Shown here: piece by piece, positions 296 to 62,390 of the stretch | How the letters are laid out: every line of letters starts with the position of its first letter | Position numbering within the stretch: the first letter of the stretch is position 1 | DNA from: Sisyra terminalis | Lineage: Eukaryota > Arthropoda > Insecta > Neuroptera > Sisyridae | Length of the DNA stretch: 64,000 bases | Direction: 5' to 3' | Assembly: GCA_958496175.1 (NCBI GenBank) | Contig: OY292276.1 | Location: 57,487,080 to 57,551,079 of the forward strand | Position numbers and translations under genes: made by a program | Notes under the pieces: generated by a model | Databases searched by the model: none | What the model saw: the letters and a program-made list of their open reading frames with translations, nothing else | What the model was told of the DNA's origin: nothing

Positions 296-1262
296 GATAA
301 AAATAAAATAAAATTTATTGCTCTTATAATATATATACAAAAACTTTTTTTTAAATTTAGTTTTTAAATTTTAAGTGTAGTGTACTTAGCATAAACCATC
401 CAAGCAGCGTCTGTAGATCCTGTTCTAGGATAGAGATTAGTTTTCGATATTGTAGTTGTTTATTTGAGTTGGGGAAAAATAGATGGTAATTCTTCAAAAA
501 CCCCGAATATTTTTTCTGTTTTCAGTTTGTTATAAGTCCATATGTCTTATTCTTTTATGTTTGTATTTTCTGTATTTGTGGAGTAGGCTTCCGAGGGTGT
601 AGTCATTGATGCTTTTAATTATTTGGCTAGGACTACTTTTACAATTTGAGTAGAATTTCCGCGACAAAGCGAGGATATATAAGTCTAGCAGTAGTATCTT
701 TAATTCCTCATGCAGATCGTGTACCTTGTATTTGGCTGGGTAGTTTCCCAGCATTTTTATTAATTTATTATGGACTCTTTGTTTTGTCAGATACTTGGTT
801 TTGCTTACTGAACTCCAGACTGGACATGTATATGTATGCACTGGTTTAAGCACTGTTTTATAAATTATTAATTTATTGCTGGTAGACAGCCTTGATTGTC
901 TGTTTAGCAATGGATATAAGAACTTAGTTCGGGCCATTAATTTGCTTTTCATTAGTTTAATATGTTCAGCAAAGTTGAATCTGGAATCCAGTTGCATCCC
1001 CAAGTATCTAATTGTTTTTGCCCATTCTATATTTTTCCCATTTACTAATACCTTTTTATGCTTGTTGGGTCTTCTACTAGTGAATAGGATAGCTTCAGTT
1101 TTCTTATCATTGGCCTTTATTTTCCATTTTTAAAAAATATCATTATTCTTTTTAAGAGCTTGGTTATTCTGTTGGCCACCGTATCAGCTCTCCAGGAGGA
1201 TGCAAAATTATATATAGAATAAATAGAATTAGTCCCATAATGGACCCTTGAGGAACTCCAGC
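296..1262 (-). pseudogene. Jockey-clade LINE reverse transcriptase, C-terminal relic plus 3' UTR
   Basis: Read on the minus strand this is the end of a non-LTR retrotransposon ORF2. It starts near 1262 with the RT motif AGVPQGSIMG. The catalytic YADD part is missing, apparently deleted. The frame is disturbed near 1140 and then continues through KWKIKANDKKTEAILF and RYLGMQLDSRFNF to the thumb-like region with IYKTVLKP and CPVWSS. It ends at a stop at 530-532. From 1003 down to 530 the frame is open for 157 codons, so the copy is only moderately old. The stretch from 529 to about 296 looks like the 3' UTR and ends in an AT-rich tail (attttattttattttta, minus strand). Such proteins copy their own RNA into a nicked target. 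This copy cannot be active because the 5' part and the catalytic residues are absent. Assignment to Jockey rather than CR1 rests on motif resemblance only. Confidence 0.85.
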
Positions 1263-15339: not shown

Positions 15340-16545
15340 AAACGAATTTTCAAAAAGAATCCTCAAACTCTAATACTTCATGGTTTACCCAAAATCCATA
15401 AAATAAATATGCCAATCCGACCGGTAGTGGATTACAAGCTTGCACTTGGATATTGGTTAACCAAAAAATTATTACAAACCATCAAATCAGGCATCATATT
15501 GAAAGAAAATTATTCATTAAAGACACATTTAAAGTTATGAATAATACTAAGAACCTAAAACTACCACAGAATATCAAAATGGCATCACTTGACATTGTTA
15601 ACTTATACACAAATGTTTCTATTGACGAAACATTCAAAATTATGTAATATAATCTAATGCAACAAAAATATATAATTATATGGTAATCAACGATAAAATG
15701 AACTTGTTAACCACCATATTATATAAATACTATTTCATTTTTGATCAAAAATTTTCTCACTAAAAGGAAAGATTGGACATGGGATCTCCTTTATCAGGAC
15801 TACTAGCCAACATTTACATGAATCACTTTGGAAATAAATATATTTTGAACAATAACTTCAAAAATAAAATAATATATTATGGAAGATATATAGACGATAA
15901 ATTTATATTATTTACTGGAGCTACTCGACAGATTGACAATATGATATTCGATCTGAACAAAATTAACCAGAAAATAAAATTCACTTCAGAACACGATCTA
16001 AATAGAATAATTAATTTTTAGACACAACAATCACCAATGAAAATGGAAAGTTTTCATACTATATATAGAGAATACCAACAAAAACAAATACAATTTTCCA
16101 TAAAACATCATTTCACCCAAGAAACCAAACAATGGCAGCTTATAACAATCTAATGTACAGAACAATCAAGTTCCTTCTTAGCACCAAAGCTCGTGAAGAA
16201 GAAATTAAGACAATTAAGAATATAGAATATATGAAATTAAGATAATTAAACATATAGTTATTACAAACGGATACAACAGCTCAATCATAAACAAAATAAT
16301 ATCGAAATTTACTGAAAAATTCCATTCTTCCAACTTCACCAAAGGAAAACAAAAAATATATAAAATCAAACTTCAATAATATATTTACTTCAACAATCGC
16401 CAACTTCCTAAAGAAAAATAACTTCAATATCGAATTTTCAACAAACAACAATAGTTATAATGAAAATTCTTAAACCATTGGAGAACTACCAAATTACAAA
16501 AAGAAAACAAAACCGGAATATATAAAATTAAATGTGGTTCTATGT
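15340..16545 (+). pseudogene. PLE reverse transcriptase and start of GIY-YIG domain
   Basis: Motifs appear in the PLE order. LHGLPKIHKINMPIRPVVDY starts at about 15373. MASLDIVNLYTNVSIDETF (RT motif with the first Asp) is near 15580. MGSPLSGLLANIYM is at 15778. YGRYIDDKFILFTG near 15880 is the YxDD catalytic motif with IDD. RQIDNMIFDLNKINQKIKF follows, then INFLDTTITNENGKF across a stop at 16019-16021. After that come IYREPTKTNTIFHK-like residues and, near 16505, TGIYKIKCGS, the opening of the GIY-YIG nuclease. The two longest intact stretches are 15453-15647 and 15773-16021. The RT would copy the element's RNA at the cut target. It is inactivated by stops. Confidence 0.85.
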
Positions 16546-16559
16546 TCAAATAAGATATA

Positions 16560-17240
16560 AAGGACATATACCCAAGAATCATGTCATTGGTTAAAATCTA
16601 TTAAAGTTTTAATAACATATTCACTGATTGGTCGAAATAAAGATTGAGTTTTGTACGGTGTGTTATGATTGGCTAATGCATCCTGCGCCATTCAAGTAAG
16701 TACAGTGCCTTGATTTGTACAAAGTAAGCTTAGTATTTCTCGTTTAAAGTGACTTTTGAGTACAGAACATTTGGAACGATATTTTTTTCTATTTATAATT
16801 TATATATCGCAAGGAAACTGATTGTTATTTAAATAATTTTTCTATAAAACTGTTAATTATAATTTAGAATTAAGATTTTCAATTTAAAATTTACTTTTGT
16901 GGATGAAGATCGTTCATTCGTTGATTTGGTAAGGGTTATTTTCCTTCGGTCTTAATAAAGATCCGTAAATTGAGAACTATTAAATTTTTTTTCTTATCAT
17001 ATTTTGGCAACTTATTTTAATTTTGATTATTATCGCGATCAACGATCATGTCTTATTGTTTTTAAAGTAAAATTTTGACCTACAATTTAAAGTCTTTGAA
17101 TGAAGTCCAATAACTCTTTTTCACTGTTTGCATTTATGATTCTATTTTCTACGAATTGAAGGTCGAAAAATCACTTTCCACCAATTTTAATTCCATTATT
17201 TTTCTCTTCCAAAATTATTTCCAGTATTATTTCTCCTACA
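16560..17240. other. sequence interrupting the PLE GIY-YIG domain
   Basis: Between the GIY motif (ending near 16540) and the domain's C-terminal part (starting near 17245), about 680 bases do not translate into anything related. A normal PLE would have roughly 100-150 bases here. The start (cattggttaaaatctattaa, gattggtcgaaataaag, gattggctaatgcatcct) has repeated ATTGG boxes and looks promoter- or UTR-like. It may be an inserted element, the 5' region of another PLE copy, or a product of rearrangement. Confidence 0.55.
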
Positions 17241-17472: not shown

Positions 17473-17508
17473 CTGATGATGATAGCCAGGAACTGTTGAT
17501 ATACGTCG
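17473..17508 (+). ncRNA. decayed hammerhead-ribozyme-like motif in PLE 3' region
   Basis: Just after the PLE stop codon the sequence ctgatga (17473-17479) is followed by about 21 bases and then gatatacgtcgt. In PLE hammerheads the core is CTGATGA, stem II, GAAACGTC. Here the GAAA is changed to a GATA-like sequence and the stem is weak, so it would not be expected to cut. Confidence 0.45.
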
Positions 17509-41369: not shown

Positions 41370-42344
41370 AATTTGGATGATGATTACTTTGGCAAATAAA
41401 AAATAGCAAAAGTTGTATAAAATAAAAGCTTAGTTACATGAAAATATTAATTAATATTAGGAATAATATTAGAAGTCACATCCTCCCCTGCCGGACACTT
41501 TTTGCGATTTCAATCCTTCCGACACCCCTAAACTTAAACAAATGACTTAAATTCGTCAATAACGGTTGGATTAAAAAACAATAAATTTAGTCAATTTAAG
41601 TAAATTCAATAGAATAATTATATTTGGTTTCCACTCACACGTATGTATTTACAACTTTTATTCTCCGTTGGTCTATTATTAATGGTAGAGGGTAGAAACC
41701 ATACTAGGATCTAGCAATGGAGGATATGGTTTCTAATATTATTTCGAATAGAAAATAAAAAAAAGACCCTATACTTTTACGAAACTAAGCTTTTATTTTC
41801 TACATCTTTGCTACTTGTTACCTGCCAAAGTAATCACCATCCTAACTTCATAGTCGTTGATAATTTTAACTTTCATTGGGGACAAGTACAGAAAAATTTT
41901 CAACTTTTATAAAATAACGAAGGTCTGAACGTCGCGAAACTTTATTGTAACAATACTGTTAAAACTTTTTTATTATTAAAAGATTGGAAAATTTCAAGAA
42001 CTTTACTACAAATCTCAAAGAATTTAAAATGGAATTGTTGAAAATAAAGTTTTTCTCATTTGAAGAAAAATTCATCAGTGATTTATATCTGTAGTGATAT
42101 ATTTTTCTATTATTCTATAAATCAAAGTAAATTATCGATTACTTTAAAAAAAAATAATACGAAACTTTTGAGCAAAGATTCATTAAAATTTCAATGCAAA
42201 ACAAATTGTTTTACCTTCATTTTGATTATTAAAGCTCAATAGACTCGAAAAGCTTTTAAAAGAAATTTTATTTGAAACTTTATTTTATTTTATTTGAAAT
42301 AGTTATGATATAAACTACAAACTTCCCTAAAAATTAAGAAAAAT
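41370..42344. other. unassigned sequence
   Basis: No gene or element was recognised. The ggtctattattaatggtaga region (41670-41720) is not repeated elsewhere in the window. Confidence 0.35.
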
Positions 42345-42696
42345 AAATAAGAAAACAATTCAGGTTGTTTAAGATCGGTTTTTTTATTTAATATATTTAC
42401 TATTCAATTAGCTACGTTGCGTTACGTATCGTAACTTCATTAGGCTTCTAAAAAAAATTAAAATAATTACAAAATATGTATTATTTAATTTCAAATATTT
42501 TATATTACCTATATTATATATATATATATTATTATAGTTTTTAAATTTATGCATGATTGACATATTTTGTAATTATTTTAATTTTTGTTAGAAGCCTGAT
42601 GAAGTTACGATACGTAACGAAACGTAGCTAATTGAATAGTAAAAATATTAAATAAAAAAACCGATCTTAAACAACCTGAATTGTCTTCTTATTTAA
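42345..42696. mobile_element. inverted repeat with 136-bp arms, probably paired PLE termini
   Basis: The left arm (42345-42480) and right arm (42560-42696) are inverted copies around a 79-base loop with an (AT)n run. Each arm contains aagcctRatgaagttacgat, cagctaattgaatagt-like sequence and ccgatcttaaacaacctgaa. The right arm carries a hammerhead core. In the left arm, read on the minus strand, the same positions are mutated (CTAATGA, GCAAC). PLE terminal repeats often occur in inverted pairs and carry hammerheads, which suggests this origin, but no PLE protein is attached here. Confidence 0.7.
42596..42623 (+). ncRNA. hammerhead ribozyme core (PLE type)
   Basis: CTGATGA (42596-42602) is followed by one extra A, then a perfect 6-bp stem II (GTTACG 42604-42609, loop ATA, CGTAAC 42613-42618), GAAA (42619-42622) and CGTAGC. 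This is the conserved catalytic core of hammerhead ribozymes in the form seen in PLE termini (CTGATGAA, stem, GAAACGT). Stems I and III were not resolved, and the extra A between the core and stem II could matter, so activity is uncertain. Confidence 0.65.
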
Positions 42697-42699
42697 TAA

Positions 42700-43643
42700 A
42701 AAAGCTGAGGTCTGAATTTTATCATCTATTAAGAAAAATAAATTTACAAATTCACAAACAAAACTTGTCTCAGTTATAATTTATTAAGTCTGACGAAACT
42801 TAAACCGGATTTGACCCTTGGGCGATATATTTTGCGAACATTAACGTTATAAGATAGTGTCAGGGTTATTTTCTAATTACTAATTCACTCAAACTAATAG
42901 GATCTCAGAGCTTTAAATTCCATCCCCATAAATATTTCTCCCCCCACAAAAAAAAATCGTGTACCGAATAAATTATCAAGGTCAAAAAAAATGCATTGAC
43001 TGATACATCTCACTATTTTTTATAATGCCACCCCCATTTTCTCCACCCTTGCACTTAATGTACCGTCTCCATTTATTTGATTCAATAAATCATACCTATT
43101 AGAAAAACAAGCACGTAGTATCGTTGTTTCTTTCTCGCCCGTCTTAATCAAGGTGAATTTTTTTTGCCACCGCATTGAGGATAACGTGAAAAAAGAGCTT
43201 TTCAGACCTCTCGAGCTTTGTGTTGAATAAACAAAAAAAAAACCCTTCTCGTTATCTATTCATATCTAAAGCATCTTTTCATTTTCTTGGTGTGCCAACG
43301 AAATAAATCAAATTTTCCAAGCTTTTTCAAGCTTTTCCAAGTATTTAACGCAATTGTTTGTTTCGATTTACGTTGAATGATTTTTTTTTTTTTGGGGAAA
43401 CGTGTTTCAATAAATTAAGAGCTTTCTTTCGATTTAAAGTAATTTGAAGAAATATTTAATTATGCGTCAACAATTCAACGCTGATAAAATAAAAACAAAT
43501 ATAATTTGAGACCGGAAATTTCCGAAAAATAACCGGAAATTAACTAAGCATAGTTCAAAGGTTCTTGAATTTGCCTTGGGCAACATTTCCTTCATTTAAC
43601 AATAAGGGTTAGGTAGATACGTTAATGCTAATTTCAAAAACTT
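42700..43643. other. unassigned sequence
   Basis: No gene or element was recognised. Runs such as aagctttttcaagcttttcc near 43320 are part of the window-wide excess of AAGCTT-like words. Confidence 0.35.
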
Positions 43644-60412: not shown

Positions 60413-61109
60413 TTTAACCCCAACAAAACTGTCTGGTTTTTTGTAATTAAAATCTTAAATATTTAATTAATAAGCTGTTCAAATTTCAGAGTGAATCAAA
60501 CACTTCATTTTGTATTAAAAAAAAATCAACTTTGGGGGGCATTAATTATATATGAACCCCTTCAAAAATGTCTGCCATCTTGGATTCTGATTTAAAATTA
60601 CCTAAAAGTTAAGCAAGAAAAATACAAAAAAAAAGGAAACGAGGAATCCAATATATCGAATATATCGAAACCAATACCTGCCAGTTTTGGAGCGGTCACT
60701 TTGACTACTCGGCCACCAGTAGGCTAAAACATACATTTGTGGTTGTATGATATTTTTATTTCGCATAGTTTGTGTTTTAAAAACAAGAGTTTCTACGTTT
60801 TGCTGTGGTAACTATTAAAATCAAAGCCTTTTTTTAACCAGTCTGTGAAATAATATTGTGTTTTACTTTTTGAGTTTCACTTACTTTTAATAGCTTTTTT
60901 CATTCTCCTGTGTCATACTTTTGAGATATCCCAAGCGTTTTTTCGATTAAATCTTAATAAAGTCTTGACATTTGAAGACTGGTAATAATTTACAGTTGAA
61001 ACCATATGGGGTTCATATGGTTACCTTTCGATTAACATTTGTTGGCCTGTGAATCAAACACTTTTTTGGCTTATATTTTATTACACCCTTCACCCATGCG
61101 CAGTACCTG
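60413..61109. other. unassigned repeat-like sequence before the Jockey relic
   Basis: It contains a GC-richer block, ttggagcggtcactttgact (about 60690-60710), reminiscent of other insect repeats, and a 10-base tandem (atatatcgaatatatcgaaa). The word atcaaacactt occurs three times (about 60497, 61056, 61191). No coding match. Confidence 0.3.
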
Positions 61110-62390
61110 GTGTCCCGAGTTGGGTTATGCAAACACAGGTATTCCTACTTCTCATCCGATAGATACTATCCTTACAAAATTTCAAGGTGCATCAAACACT
61201 TCATGAAACTTGTGTTACTGGCTCTTAGACTAATCGAGCAAGTGCATCGCAACTATATTAGTAATGTACTGGAGAAAAAAAAAATTTTTGCAGGATTGTT
61301 TTTAGATGTTTCTCAGGTATTTGATCGTGTCTGGCATCAGGGTCTGTTGTATAAATTAGTAAACATTGTGCCCACCCAATTATTCAAACCTTTGGAGAGC
61401 TATCTAACGGATAGAAAGTTCTATGTTCAATGGAAGGATGAATCGAGTTCCAAACACAAAATAGCTGCGGGGGTTCCACAGGGCAGTGTTCTTGGACCAA
61501 CGTTTTATATAGTTTATACGGCGGATATTCCATTGGAGGAAAATATATTAACGGCAACAATTGCGGATGACACTGCAATCCTGTATGCAGGTCCAAGCCC
61601 ACACAGTACTACAAGGGAGCGGAGTGGGCAAAACGATGGATAATCAGGCTAAATGAGACCAAAACTAAATTGGTTACGTTTACTCTGAGGAAGAACTCTT
61701 GGGGACCCATTAAAATAAACGAGCACTGTATCTCAAATGATGTCTCCGTGAGATATCTAGGCTTTCACCTGGATCGACGCCTCAACTGAAAAACCCATAC
61801 TAACAAAAAAGTTGCTCAGACTACAGCACTGCACCATAGGATCGCCTGGATGACAGGCAAAAAGTCTCTGTTAAGTCTGTCATCCAAGGTAATCCTCTAC
61901 AAGGCAGTGCTCAGACCAACATGGGCATATGGGGTCCAACTCTGGAACGTGGCAAACCAAGTAATATCGAAATGATCAGAGGATGCTCAAGTAAAATCCT
62001 TCGGTTATTTCTTGGAGTTGGTCGATATATCAGGAATGACATCATTCAGCGGGACCTAAACGTTGAGGATGTCATTCAATTCATTAAGGAGCTCACAATT
62101 CGATACGTAAAAAGGGTGAAAGAATACCCAAACAAGTTGGCCTTGGGAACACTAAATGAATCCCCCCCCACAAGAGACTAAAAAGAGGGCACATTGATGT
62201 TTTCTTGTAATTTTAAGAATGTTAAACAATTTTTATCAAGCCGTTTTGTTTCTTTTTTTTCTTCTATATAGTTGTTAAGATTTTTGCCACCATTGTTCCC
62301 TCATAACGATGGTCAGAGGAATGTAAATATGTTCTAATTTTGTAAAGCCAGACTAATGTAGACTAAAAATTAGACTAAAAAAAAAATTTT
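61110..62390 (+). pseudogene. Jockey-clade LINE reverse transcriptase with 3' end
   Basis: This is the best preserved LINE of the window. LIEQVHRNYI and FAGLFLDVSQVFDRVWHQGL (61285-61345) hold the first catalytic Asp. AAGVPQGSVLGPTFYIVYTA follows at about 61462, and TIADDTAILYAG at about 61558 holds the Asp pair. After a frameshift near 61610 come EWAKRWIIRLNETKTKL, VRYLGFHLDRRLN (stop), LYKAVLRPTWAYGVQLWN, and then, after another shift near 61970, CSSKILRLFLGVGRYIRND and IIQRDLNVEDV. The coding part ends about 62213. A 3' UTR of about 165 bases leads to an A run at 62376-62386. The 5' half (endonuclease, ORF1) is missing, as usual for 5'-truncated LINEs. Confidence 0.9.

What the first reader, a model, noticed from the sequence alone, without database searches (positions are those of the whole stretch)
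42596..42623. Intact-looking hammerhead ribozyme core of PLE type
CTGATGA, a perfect 6-bp stem (GTTACG/CGTAAC) and GAAACG stand in the exact order of a hammerhead core. PLE termini are known to carry such ribozymes (Penelope-like hammerheads). An extra A sits between the core and stem II. The stem is perfect and both core halves are intact while most of the surrounding DNA is decayed.
Basis: partly seen in the sequence, partly recalled or inferred. Interest (0 to 1): 0.75.

Follow-up and report, generated by a model that had tools for sequence, protein, structure and literature searches.

The report
Hammerhead ribozyme in Penelope-like retroelement ends
The motif is one of thousands of conserved copies of a small, probably self-cutting RNA that sits at the ends of a known kind of jumping gene, and the copies also hint at how that jumping gene joins two DNA copies head to head when it inserts.

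Summary
In detail: 42596-42622 carries CTGATGA, one extra A, a perfect 6-bp stem II and GAAA. It lies in the right arm of a 379-bp head-to-head inverted element (42349-42727) with a 16-bp target-site duplication. The 37-nt core has 4,533 copies in the own genome (up to 3 mismatches; reversed control 0). In longer copies the arm follows decayed reverse transcriptase and GIY-YIG endonuclease pieces, so the arms are 3' ends (pseudo-LTRs) of a Penelope-like element (PLE). Stem I partners exist (AGC/GCT around the cut site GTA^GCT); stem III is only the palindrome ACGT, as described for PLE 'minimal type I' hammerheads. The extra A sits where viroid CChMVd has A10. Cleavage is untested; copy 5' ends do not pile up at the cut; in the window the left arm is broken and the right arm prefers a competing hairpin. 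Side result: of 77 head-to-head insertions with both ends readable, 72 have exactly one 'tailed' end. A new member of a known kind.

The parts
42333..42348 (.). left target-site duplication ATTAAGAAAAATAAAT (16 nt); its last 5 nt also match the untailed element end
   Evidence: exact direct repeat
42349..42479 (-). left arm: second PLE 3' end in inverted orientation, untailed, hammerhead core broken (CTAATGA, GCAA; at 42417-42443 on the plus strand)
   Evidence: inverted repeat 42344-42479 / 42560-42695, 96%; letters; arm alignment
42560..42727 (+). right arm: PLE 3' end with intact core and with the tail
   Evidence: 97.8% to the L035 arm over 138 nt
42593..42595 (+). stem I, 5' strand AGC (2.3-2.1)
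   Evidence: pairs with 42627-42629 in the fold of the 51-nt core
42596..42602 (+). hammerhead core CTGATGA (C3-A9)
42603..42603 (+). extra A between A9 and stem II (same place as A10 of CChMVd)
   Evidence: A in 109 of 110 arms; PMC3705267 passages
42604..42618 (+). stem II GTTACG / loop ATA / CGTAAC
42619..42622 (+). core GAAA (G12-A15.1)
42623..42626 (+). C15.2 G16.2 T16.1 A17: helix III reduced to contiguous ACGT (with A15.1); predicted cut after 42626
   Evidence: sequence and hammerhead numbering (recalled; inference); dimer pairing model
42627..42629 (+). stem I, 3' strand GCT (1.1-1.3)
42662..42696 (+). conserved stretch just before the untailed end, likely RT-initiation region
   Evidence: this 35-mer has 2,981 copies at up to 2 mismatches, control 0; layout as in PMC11167929
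42699..42727 (+). tail (about 29 nt), present at this end only
42728..42743 (.). right target-site duplication

Best explanation
The motif is a minimal type I hammerhead ribozyme of an endonuclease-bearing Penelope-like retroelement. Each arm of the window element is one 5'-truncated PLE cDNA: leader, hammerhead, RT-start region, with or without the tail. Two such cDNAs are fused head to head between a 16-bp TSD. Mechanism, inferred: the RNA folds stem I (AGC/GCU plus an outer helix) and stem II around the core. Helix III has no loop and is only ACGU, so it can form only between two molecules, or with protein help. Cleavage would fall after GUA (42626|42627). Insertion, inferred from end structure: the PLE enzyme starts one cDNA at each of two RT sites about 30 nt apart, one on each target strand, which gives exactly one tailed end. 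Shown: sequence, copy number, PLE context, stem I potential, one-tail pattern, TSDs. Not shown: cleavage, protein dependence, the order of events.
For: Core in 4,533 copies, control 0. In 110 arms the mean mismatch is 2.3% over 12 core positions, against 5.7% (q46-70) and 5.5% (q71-99) outside; N7, free in the hammerhead rule (recalled), and loop II vary between subfamilies. Unconstrained folds of L035 and L043 give stem I + stem II + open outer stem I. In 133 arms with intact core (of 179) stem I pair 2.3-1.3 has mean probability 0.66 against 0.40 with shuffled flanks. ATTCAAG heads go with TTTGAAT in 23 of 25, other TCAAG heads with TTGAA in 52 of 62. RT piece of L041: RVT_1 E 7.4e-7, relatives in Cotesia, Diachasma, Callosobruchus and others, one of them, P0018, with GIY-YIG; EN piece of L068 38% identical to that GIY-YIG. 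TSD matches of 10 nt or more in 40 of 77 pairs against 2 of 228 swapped-flank controls. One-tail: 72 of 77.
Against: No Rfam match in the window at gathering score, nor any hammerhead among matches up to E 10 around the motif; RF00163 finds none in the genome, though it rang in none of 14 control genomes either; RF00008 did not complete. Part of the core-against-flank contrast comes from a few subfamily positions: without q50, q72 and q83 the outside means fall to about 3.7% and 4.1% (worked out from the table). Fold z-scores are not significant (-1.39 to 0.04). The window right arm prefers a competing hairpin in the 91-nt fold, and its stem I pair probability is 0.08 against 0.50 with shuffled flanks. 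The modelled ribozyme dimer (-14.5 kcal/mol) is weaker than the best duplex (-28.8) for the window sequence. Arm 5' ends do not cluster at the predicted cut: of 20 hits starting at q12-q80, one starts at q38; the exact two-arm junction tried there occurs once in the genome. The extra A is outside the consensus core.
Confidence: 0.88

Rival explanations
1. The conserved stretch works as DNA or as a protein-binding RNA site (promoter, PLE protein binding site), and its hammerhead likeness is inherited but no longer catalytic.
For: No pile-up of copy 5' ends at the cut; extra A and lack of helix III; in the anole PLE the ribozyme is silent without protein and its catalytic mutants still insert (PMC11167929).
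Against: Core positions vary less than their neighbours while N7 and loop II vary; stem I potential kept across different 5' heads.
Confidence: 0.25
2. A DNA transposon MITE or foldback element with long terminal inverted repeats; the hammerhead is a by-product of a palindrome.
For: 136-nt inverted arms, 96% alike, and a TSD.
Against: The two ends differ by the tail in 72 of 77 insertions; TSD length varies; arms are contiguous with RT and GIY-YIG coding pieces. No separate search for a transposase was made.
Confidence: 0.03
3. Chance resemblance to a hammerhead core.
For: The bare pattern CTGATGA...GAAA occurs 5 times in the window against 1.09 expected.
Against: With the stem requirement 4 hits in 400 simulated windows; 4,533 genomic copies.
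Confidence: 0.02
4. A metazoan non-LTR retrozyme: a non-autonomous hammerhead element amplified through circular RNA and moved by a PLE.
For: Solo type B arms share at most about 50-85 nt upstream of the core and then diverge, so a short non-autonomous RNA is possible.
Against: Retrozymes are tandem repeats of type I hammerheads with a (weak) helix III (PMC7229834 passages); here arms are head to head and helix III is missing. Tandem arrays were not searched for systematically.
Confidence: 0.05

Closest known systems
Minimal type I hammerhead ribozymes of Penelope-like elements (Cervera & De la Pena 2014; Lunse et al. 2017; neither paper held, known from PMC7761336 and PMC6155905 passages and recall)
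   Same: CUGANGA, stem II, GAAA, open stem I, helix III stripped to its conserved nucleotides, in PLE pseudo-LTRs and dispersed in thousands
   Different: an extra A between A9 and stem II in 109 of 110 arms; whether other PLE hammerheads have it could not be checked here
Poseidon PAc of Anolis carolinensis (PMC11167929, parts 1-2 of 4 and passages seen)
   Same: hammerhead near the start codon (cut 26 nt after it there, 28 nt after the ATG of CTGATGA here); two RT start sites giving a 30-40-bp tail (about 29 here)
   Different: here the reading frame from that ATG closes after 10 codons; in PAc C3 and G8 lie before the start codon, so the register differs
Penelope elements of Adineta vaga (PMC3846280, passages seen)
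   Same: head-to-head inverted pLTRs, tail optionally on one of them, TSDs of 8-10 bp
   Different: here many insertions consist of little more than two 3' ends, in high copy number; TSD matches range up to 17 nt
CChMVd plus-strand hammerhead (PMC3705267, passages seen)
   Same: extra A at the same place, between A9 and G10.1; moderately slows cleavage there
   Different: a viroid ribozyme; its other helices were not compared here

Membership tests
Endonuclease-bearing Penelope-like element | RT related to PLE RTs upstream of the arm | tested here: met
   L041 RT piece: YVDD, RVT_1 E 7.4e-7, 29.5 bits, just under the cut-off 29.6; 36 relatives at E 1e-8; 55% to P0018. None of the relatives listed bears the name Penelope; the PLE label rests on RT plus GIY-YIG and on layout
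Endonuclease-bearing Penelope-like element | GIY-YIG endonuclease after the RT | tested here: met
   L068 EN piece 38% identical to the GIY-YIG of P0018, which Pfam recognises; Pfam does not recognise the piece itself; no PDB match
Endonuclease-bearing Penelope-like element | pseudo-LTR with optional 30-40-bp tail at one inverted end | tested here: met
Endonuclease-bearing Penelope-like element | target-site duplication | tested here: met
Endonuclease-bearing Penelope-like element | pLTRs also in direct (tandem) orientation around the ORF | not tested
   no systematic look for direct pairs
Minimal type I hammerhead ribozyme | CUGANGA and GAAA cores flanking stem II | tested here: met
Minimal type I hammerhead ribozyme | stem II directly joined to A9 | tested here: not met
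   one extra A; a natural active hammerhead (CChMVd) has the same insertion, so this lowers rather than ends the claim
Minimal type I hammerhead ribozyme | open stem I across the cut site, NUH before the cut | tested here: met
   AGC/GCT and GTA
Minimal type I hammerhead ribozyme | self-cleavage, alone or as dimer | not testable with these tools
   no bench; dimer model only
Rfam hammerhead families | covariance score above gathering | tested here: not met
   window; genome, RF00163 only:
Metazoan non-LTR retrozyme | hammerhead with its own helix III | tested here: not met
   only ACGT without a loop
Metazoan non-LTR retrozyme | tandem repeats | not tested
   arms examined as head-to-head pairs; tandem arrays not searched for

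The most novel reading that the evidence does not exclude
PLE head-to-head insertions obey a one-tail rule: each uses both RT start sites, one per target strand, on the same RNA or on RNAs of the same source copy. The two reactions would be coupled, and simple self-copying (self-priming) of one cDNA excluded. The hammerhead, with a fixed extra A and no helix III, would then be a structural or protein-assisted element of this two-site complex rather than an RNA cutter used before copying.
Probability: 0.35. Interest if true: 0.65.

Novelty: new member of a known kind. Interest (0 to 1): 0.42.

Why it matters
The role of PLE hammerheads is called a mystery in print (PMC7761336 passage), and the origin of head-to-head PLE insertions was left open between self-priming and other models (PMC3846280 passages). 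One genome with about 4,500 core copies allows statistics: a near-strict one-tail pattern in the sample, shared subfamily marks between the two arms of an insertion, and no enrichment of copy ends at the ribozyme cut. These make both questions testable. The fixed extra A offers a natural test of a core insertion that I know, from recall, only from viroid-like RNAs.

Tried and rejected
MITE/DNA transposon: rejected because the two ends differ by the tail and the arms run into PLE coding pieces. Chance: rejected. Rfam recognition: negative. Pile-up of 5' ends at the cut as a trace of cleavage: negative, with limits: one sample was chosen for an intact core, and the 16-nt junction pattern fits only TTGA-type arms without mismatch. 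L168 has its head-to-head junction at TTAGCTAA and L095 has one arm starting at q38; single cases. A first attempt to measure how far arms extend upstream was confounded because alignments run through the junction into the opposite arm; redone with solo arms, where an offset of -118 in 17 arm ends is probably still an artefact of a palindromic library arm. Not achieved: a genome-wide PLE protein search for other PLE families with their own hammerheads, so there is no between-family covariation test. The Lunse, Cervera and Terminon papers are not held (the DOI was mistyped, the PMC id was right).

Tail scoring depends on the method: (alignment end) gave 71 one-tail, 5 two-tail, 1 no-tail of 77; (tail alignment score) gave 72, 3 and 2. 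By eye L111 and probably L032 are one-tailed. L023, L078 and L119 have palindromic flanks and look like locus-level inverted duplications or assembly folds; L091 has partly palindromic flanks but one tail. L011 is a two-tail case in which no TSD was found; L080 has a decayed candidate tail. 13 of 90 pairs were left out because an end was not reached. Loci L001-L008, L047, L048 and L057 were left out as duplicates of other loci (L048 overlaps L069).

Full report
What is there. Window 42596-42622 reads CTGATGA A GTTACG ATA CGTAAC GAAA, followed by CGTAGCT. It sits in the right arm of an inverted repeat, 42344-42479 / 42560-42695, 96% complementary, 80 nt apart. A 16-nt direct repeat, ATTAAGAAAAATAAAT, stands at 42333-42348 and 42728-42743, which marks an insertion of 379 bp (42349-42727) with a target-site duplication. 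The left arm has the same sequence with both core halves damaged (CTAATGA, GCAA). No Rfam family matches the window at its gathering score; around the motif, the two matches up to E 10 are not hammerheads.

Not chance. A descriptor with a perfect stem is met at one place in the window and gives 4 hits in 400 simulated windows. The genome (376.6 Mb, 11 contigs) holds 4,533 copies of the 37-nt core at up to 3 mismatches; the pattern read backwards has none. The downstream 35-nt stretch has 2,981 copies at up to 2 mismatches, control 0. In viral and prokaryote collections a loose version of the pattern matches 22 times, never with a stem II above 3 bp.

What it belongs to. 38 loci were fetched from the similarity search, then 20 from the list of exact 37-mers and 60 more from the same list; the list shows only the first 100 places of the genome, all on contig C1. 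In several loci the arm follows coding pieces on the same strand: L041 (RT with YVDD, then GIY-YIG pieces, then the arm), L068, L050, L039, L038, L044. The L041 RT piece scores 29.5 bits with RVT_1 (cut-off 29.6). Its 36 relatives at E 1e-8 include proteins of Cotesia, Diachasma, Polistes, Callosobruchus and Melitaea, and P0018 joins this RT end to a GIY-YIG domain; the L068 piece aligns to that GIY-YIG at 38%. RT followed by GIY-YIG is the make-up of endonuclease-bearing PLEs (PMC11167929). The arms are therefore PLE 3' ends (pseudo-LTRs). The frames printed are short and broken; they were searched as pieces.

Ends and insertion. Arm ends fall into two groups: untailed (about q101-118) and tailed (q124-138, mostly 136-138). 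90 head-to-head pairs were found; in 77 both ends are readable. Exactly one end is tailed in 72 of 77 by tail scoring and in 71 of 77 by alignment end, against 38.4 expected if ends were independent. The first sample was chosen by likeness to the window copy, which has one tail, and is biased to that form; the C1 sample was not chosen by tails and gives 48 of 51 by either scoring. The tail is on the left arm in 36 and on the right in 35. Of the five exceptions, three (L023, L078, L119) have palindromic flanks, one (L080) has a decayed candidate tail, and one (L011) is a two-tail case without a detected TSD. Exact TSD matches of 10 nt or more occur in 40 of 77 pairs, against 2 of 228 swapped-flank controls; in 11 of 77 no match of 7 nt or more was found. 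Subfamily marks agree between the two arms of one insertion (87 pairs, the three palindromic loci left out): q50 in 56 of 75 against 25.5 by shuffling, q11 in 71 of 71, q24 in 70 of 72; more weakly q72 in 50 of 74 against 36.6; whole-arm identity is 94.7% within and 92.6% between insertions. L030 has two different heads, so the two cDNAs are not always of one template. One tail at one inverted end is described for Penelope in print (PMC3846280, passages), and two RT sites on one RNA, with both DNA strands cut and extended, for the anole PLE (PMC11167929, parts 1 and 2 of 4 read). [quoted passage not shown] The numbers here suggest a near-strict one-tail rule. Copying of one cDNA by itself would give two equal ends, so that model fits poorly (inference).

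The ribozyme. In 110 arms not chosen by an exact core (65 + 45), the 12 core positions have 2.3% mismatches, stem II 4.4%, N7 8.2%, q46-70 5.7%, q71-99 5.5%; without the subfamily positions q50, q72 and q83 the last two fall to about 3.7% and 4.1%. The core's own variation is scattered; arms are related, so this is not a strict test of selection. The extra A is kept in 109 of 110. All three forward frames close in or just after the core (TGA 42600, TAG 42625, TAA 42629), so coding does not explain its conservation. Stem I: AGC before the core and GCT after GTA. Without constraint L035 and L043 fold into stem I, stem II and an open outer stem I; many of the type B arms printed do the same, while a number misfold. 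Over 133 arms with intact core (of 179), the stem I pair 2.3-1.3 has mean probability 0.66 against 0.40 when only the flanks are shuffled. Heads with ATTCAAG go with TTTGAAT on the other strand (23 of 25), other TCAAG heads with TTGAA (52 of 62); this lengthens the helix in one subfamily and is not a true compensatory change. Helix III is only A-C-G-T, palindromic, so it can form between two RNAs; a nested dimer model exists (-14.5 kcal/mol), but the best duplex is stronger (-28.8). In print PLE hammerheads usually lack the non-conserved nucleotides of helix III and their role is unknown (PMC7761336 and PMC6155905 passages). The extra A has a precedent: CChMVd carries A10 between A9 and G10.1, with a moderate loss of rate (PMC3705267 passage).

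Against activity. The window right arm prefers a competing hairpin in the 91-nt fold, z-scores are weak, and its stem I pair probability is 0.08 against 0.50 with shuffled flanks. Arm 5' ends do not gather at the cut: of 20 hits that start at q12-q80 one starts at q38, and the exact two-arm junction tried occurs at one place in the genome. This agrees with the anole PLE, where no RNA ends were seen at the cut, the ribozyme needed protein, and its mutants still inserted (PMC11167929). So cleavage, if it occurs, probably does not usually precede copying.

Verdict. It is a new member of a known kind. What is fresh is the one-tail pattern in numbers and the fixed extra A. Searches of the held library for PLE with hammerhead, tail, inverted repeats or twin priming showed no paper on such a rule in the listings and passages seen; most subscription papers are not held.

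Noticed in passing
window 15525-16700 (+): Remnant of a second, different PLE-like RT (YIDD, MGSPLSGLLANIYM), about 30% identical to L041 RT and broken by stops and shifts, with a possible GIY start (GIYKIKCG) after it. The only CTGANGA...GAAA match in 13-21 kb, at 17473, was not examined for stems.
   Followed up: partly
window 530-1129 (-) and 61053-61643 (+): Open frames that look like non-LTR (Jockey-like) retrotransposon RT pieces (label recalled, not tested).
   Followed up: no
L023, L078, L119: The DNA outside both arms is itself inverted and nearly identical, so these loci are larger palindromes: inverted duplications of the locus or assembly folds.
   Followed up: partly
L048: A head-to-head insertion lies between open frames that look like exons of a DEAH-type RNA helicase, so the element may sit inside a gene (label recalled).
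   Followed up: no
L054, L062, L086, L099, L110, L113, L114, L121: Solo type B arms share at most about 50-85 nt upstream of the core and then diverge, which could mark a fixed RNA 5' end or a short non-autonomous subfamily.
   Followed up: partly
L168 about 169-176: Head-to-head junction at TTAGCTAA, next to the predicted cleavage site; a single case.
   Followed up: yes
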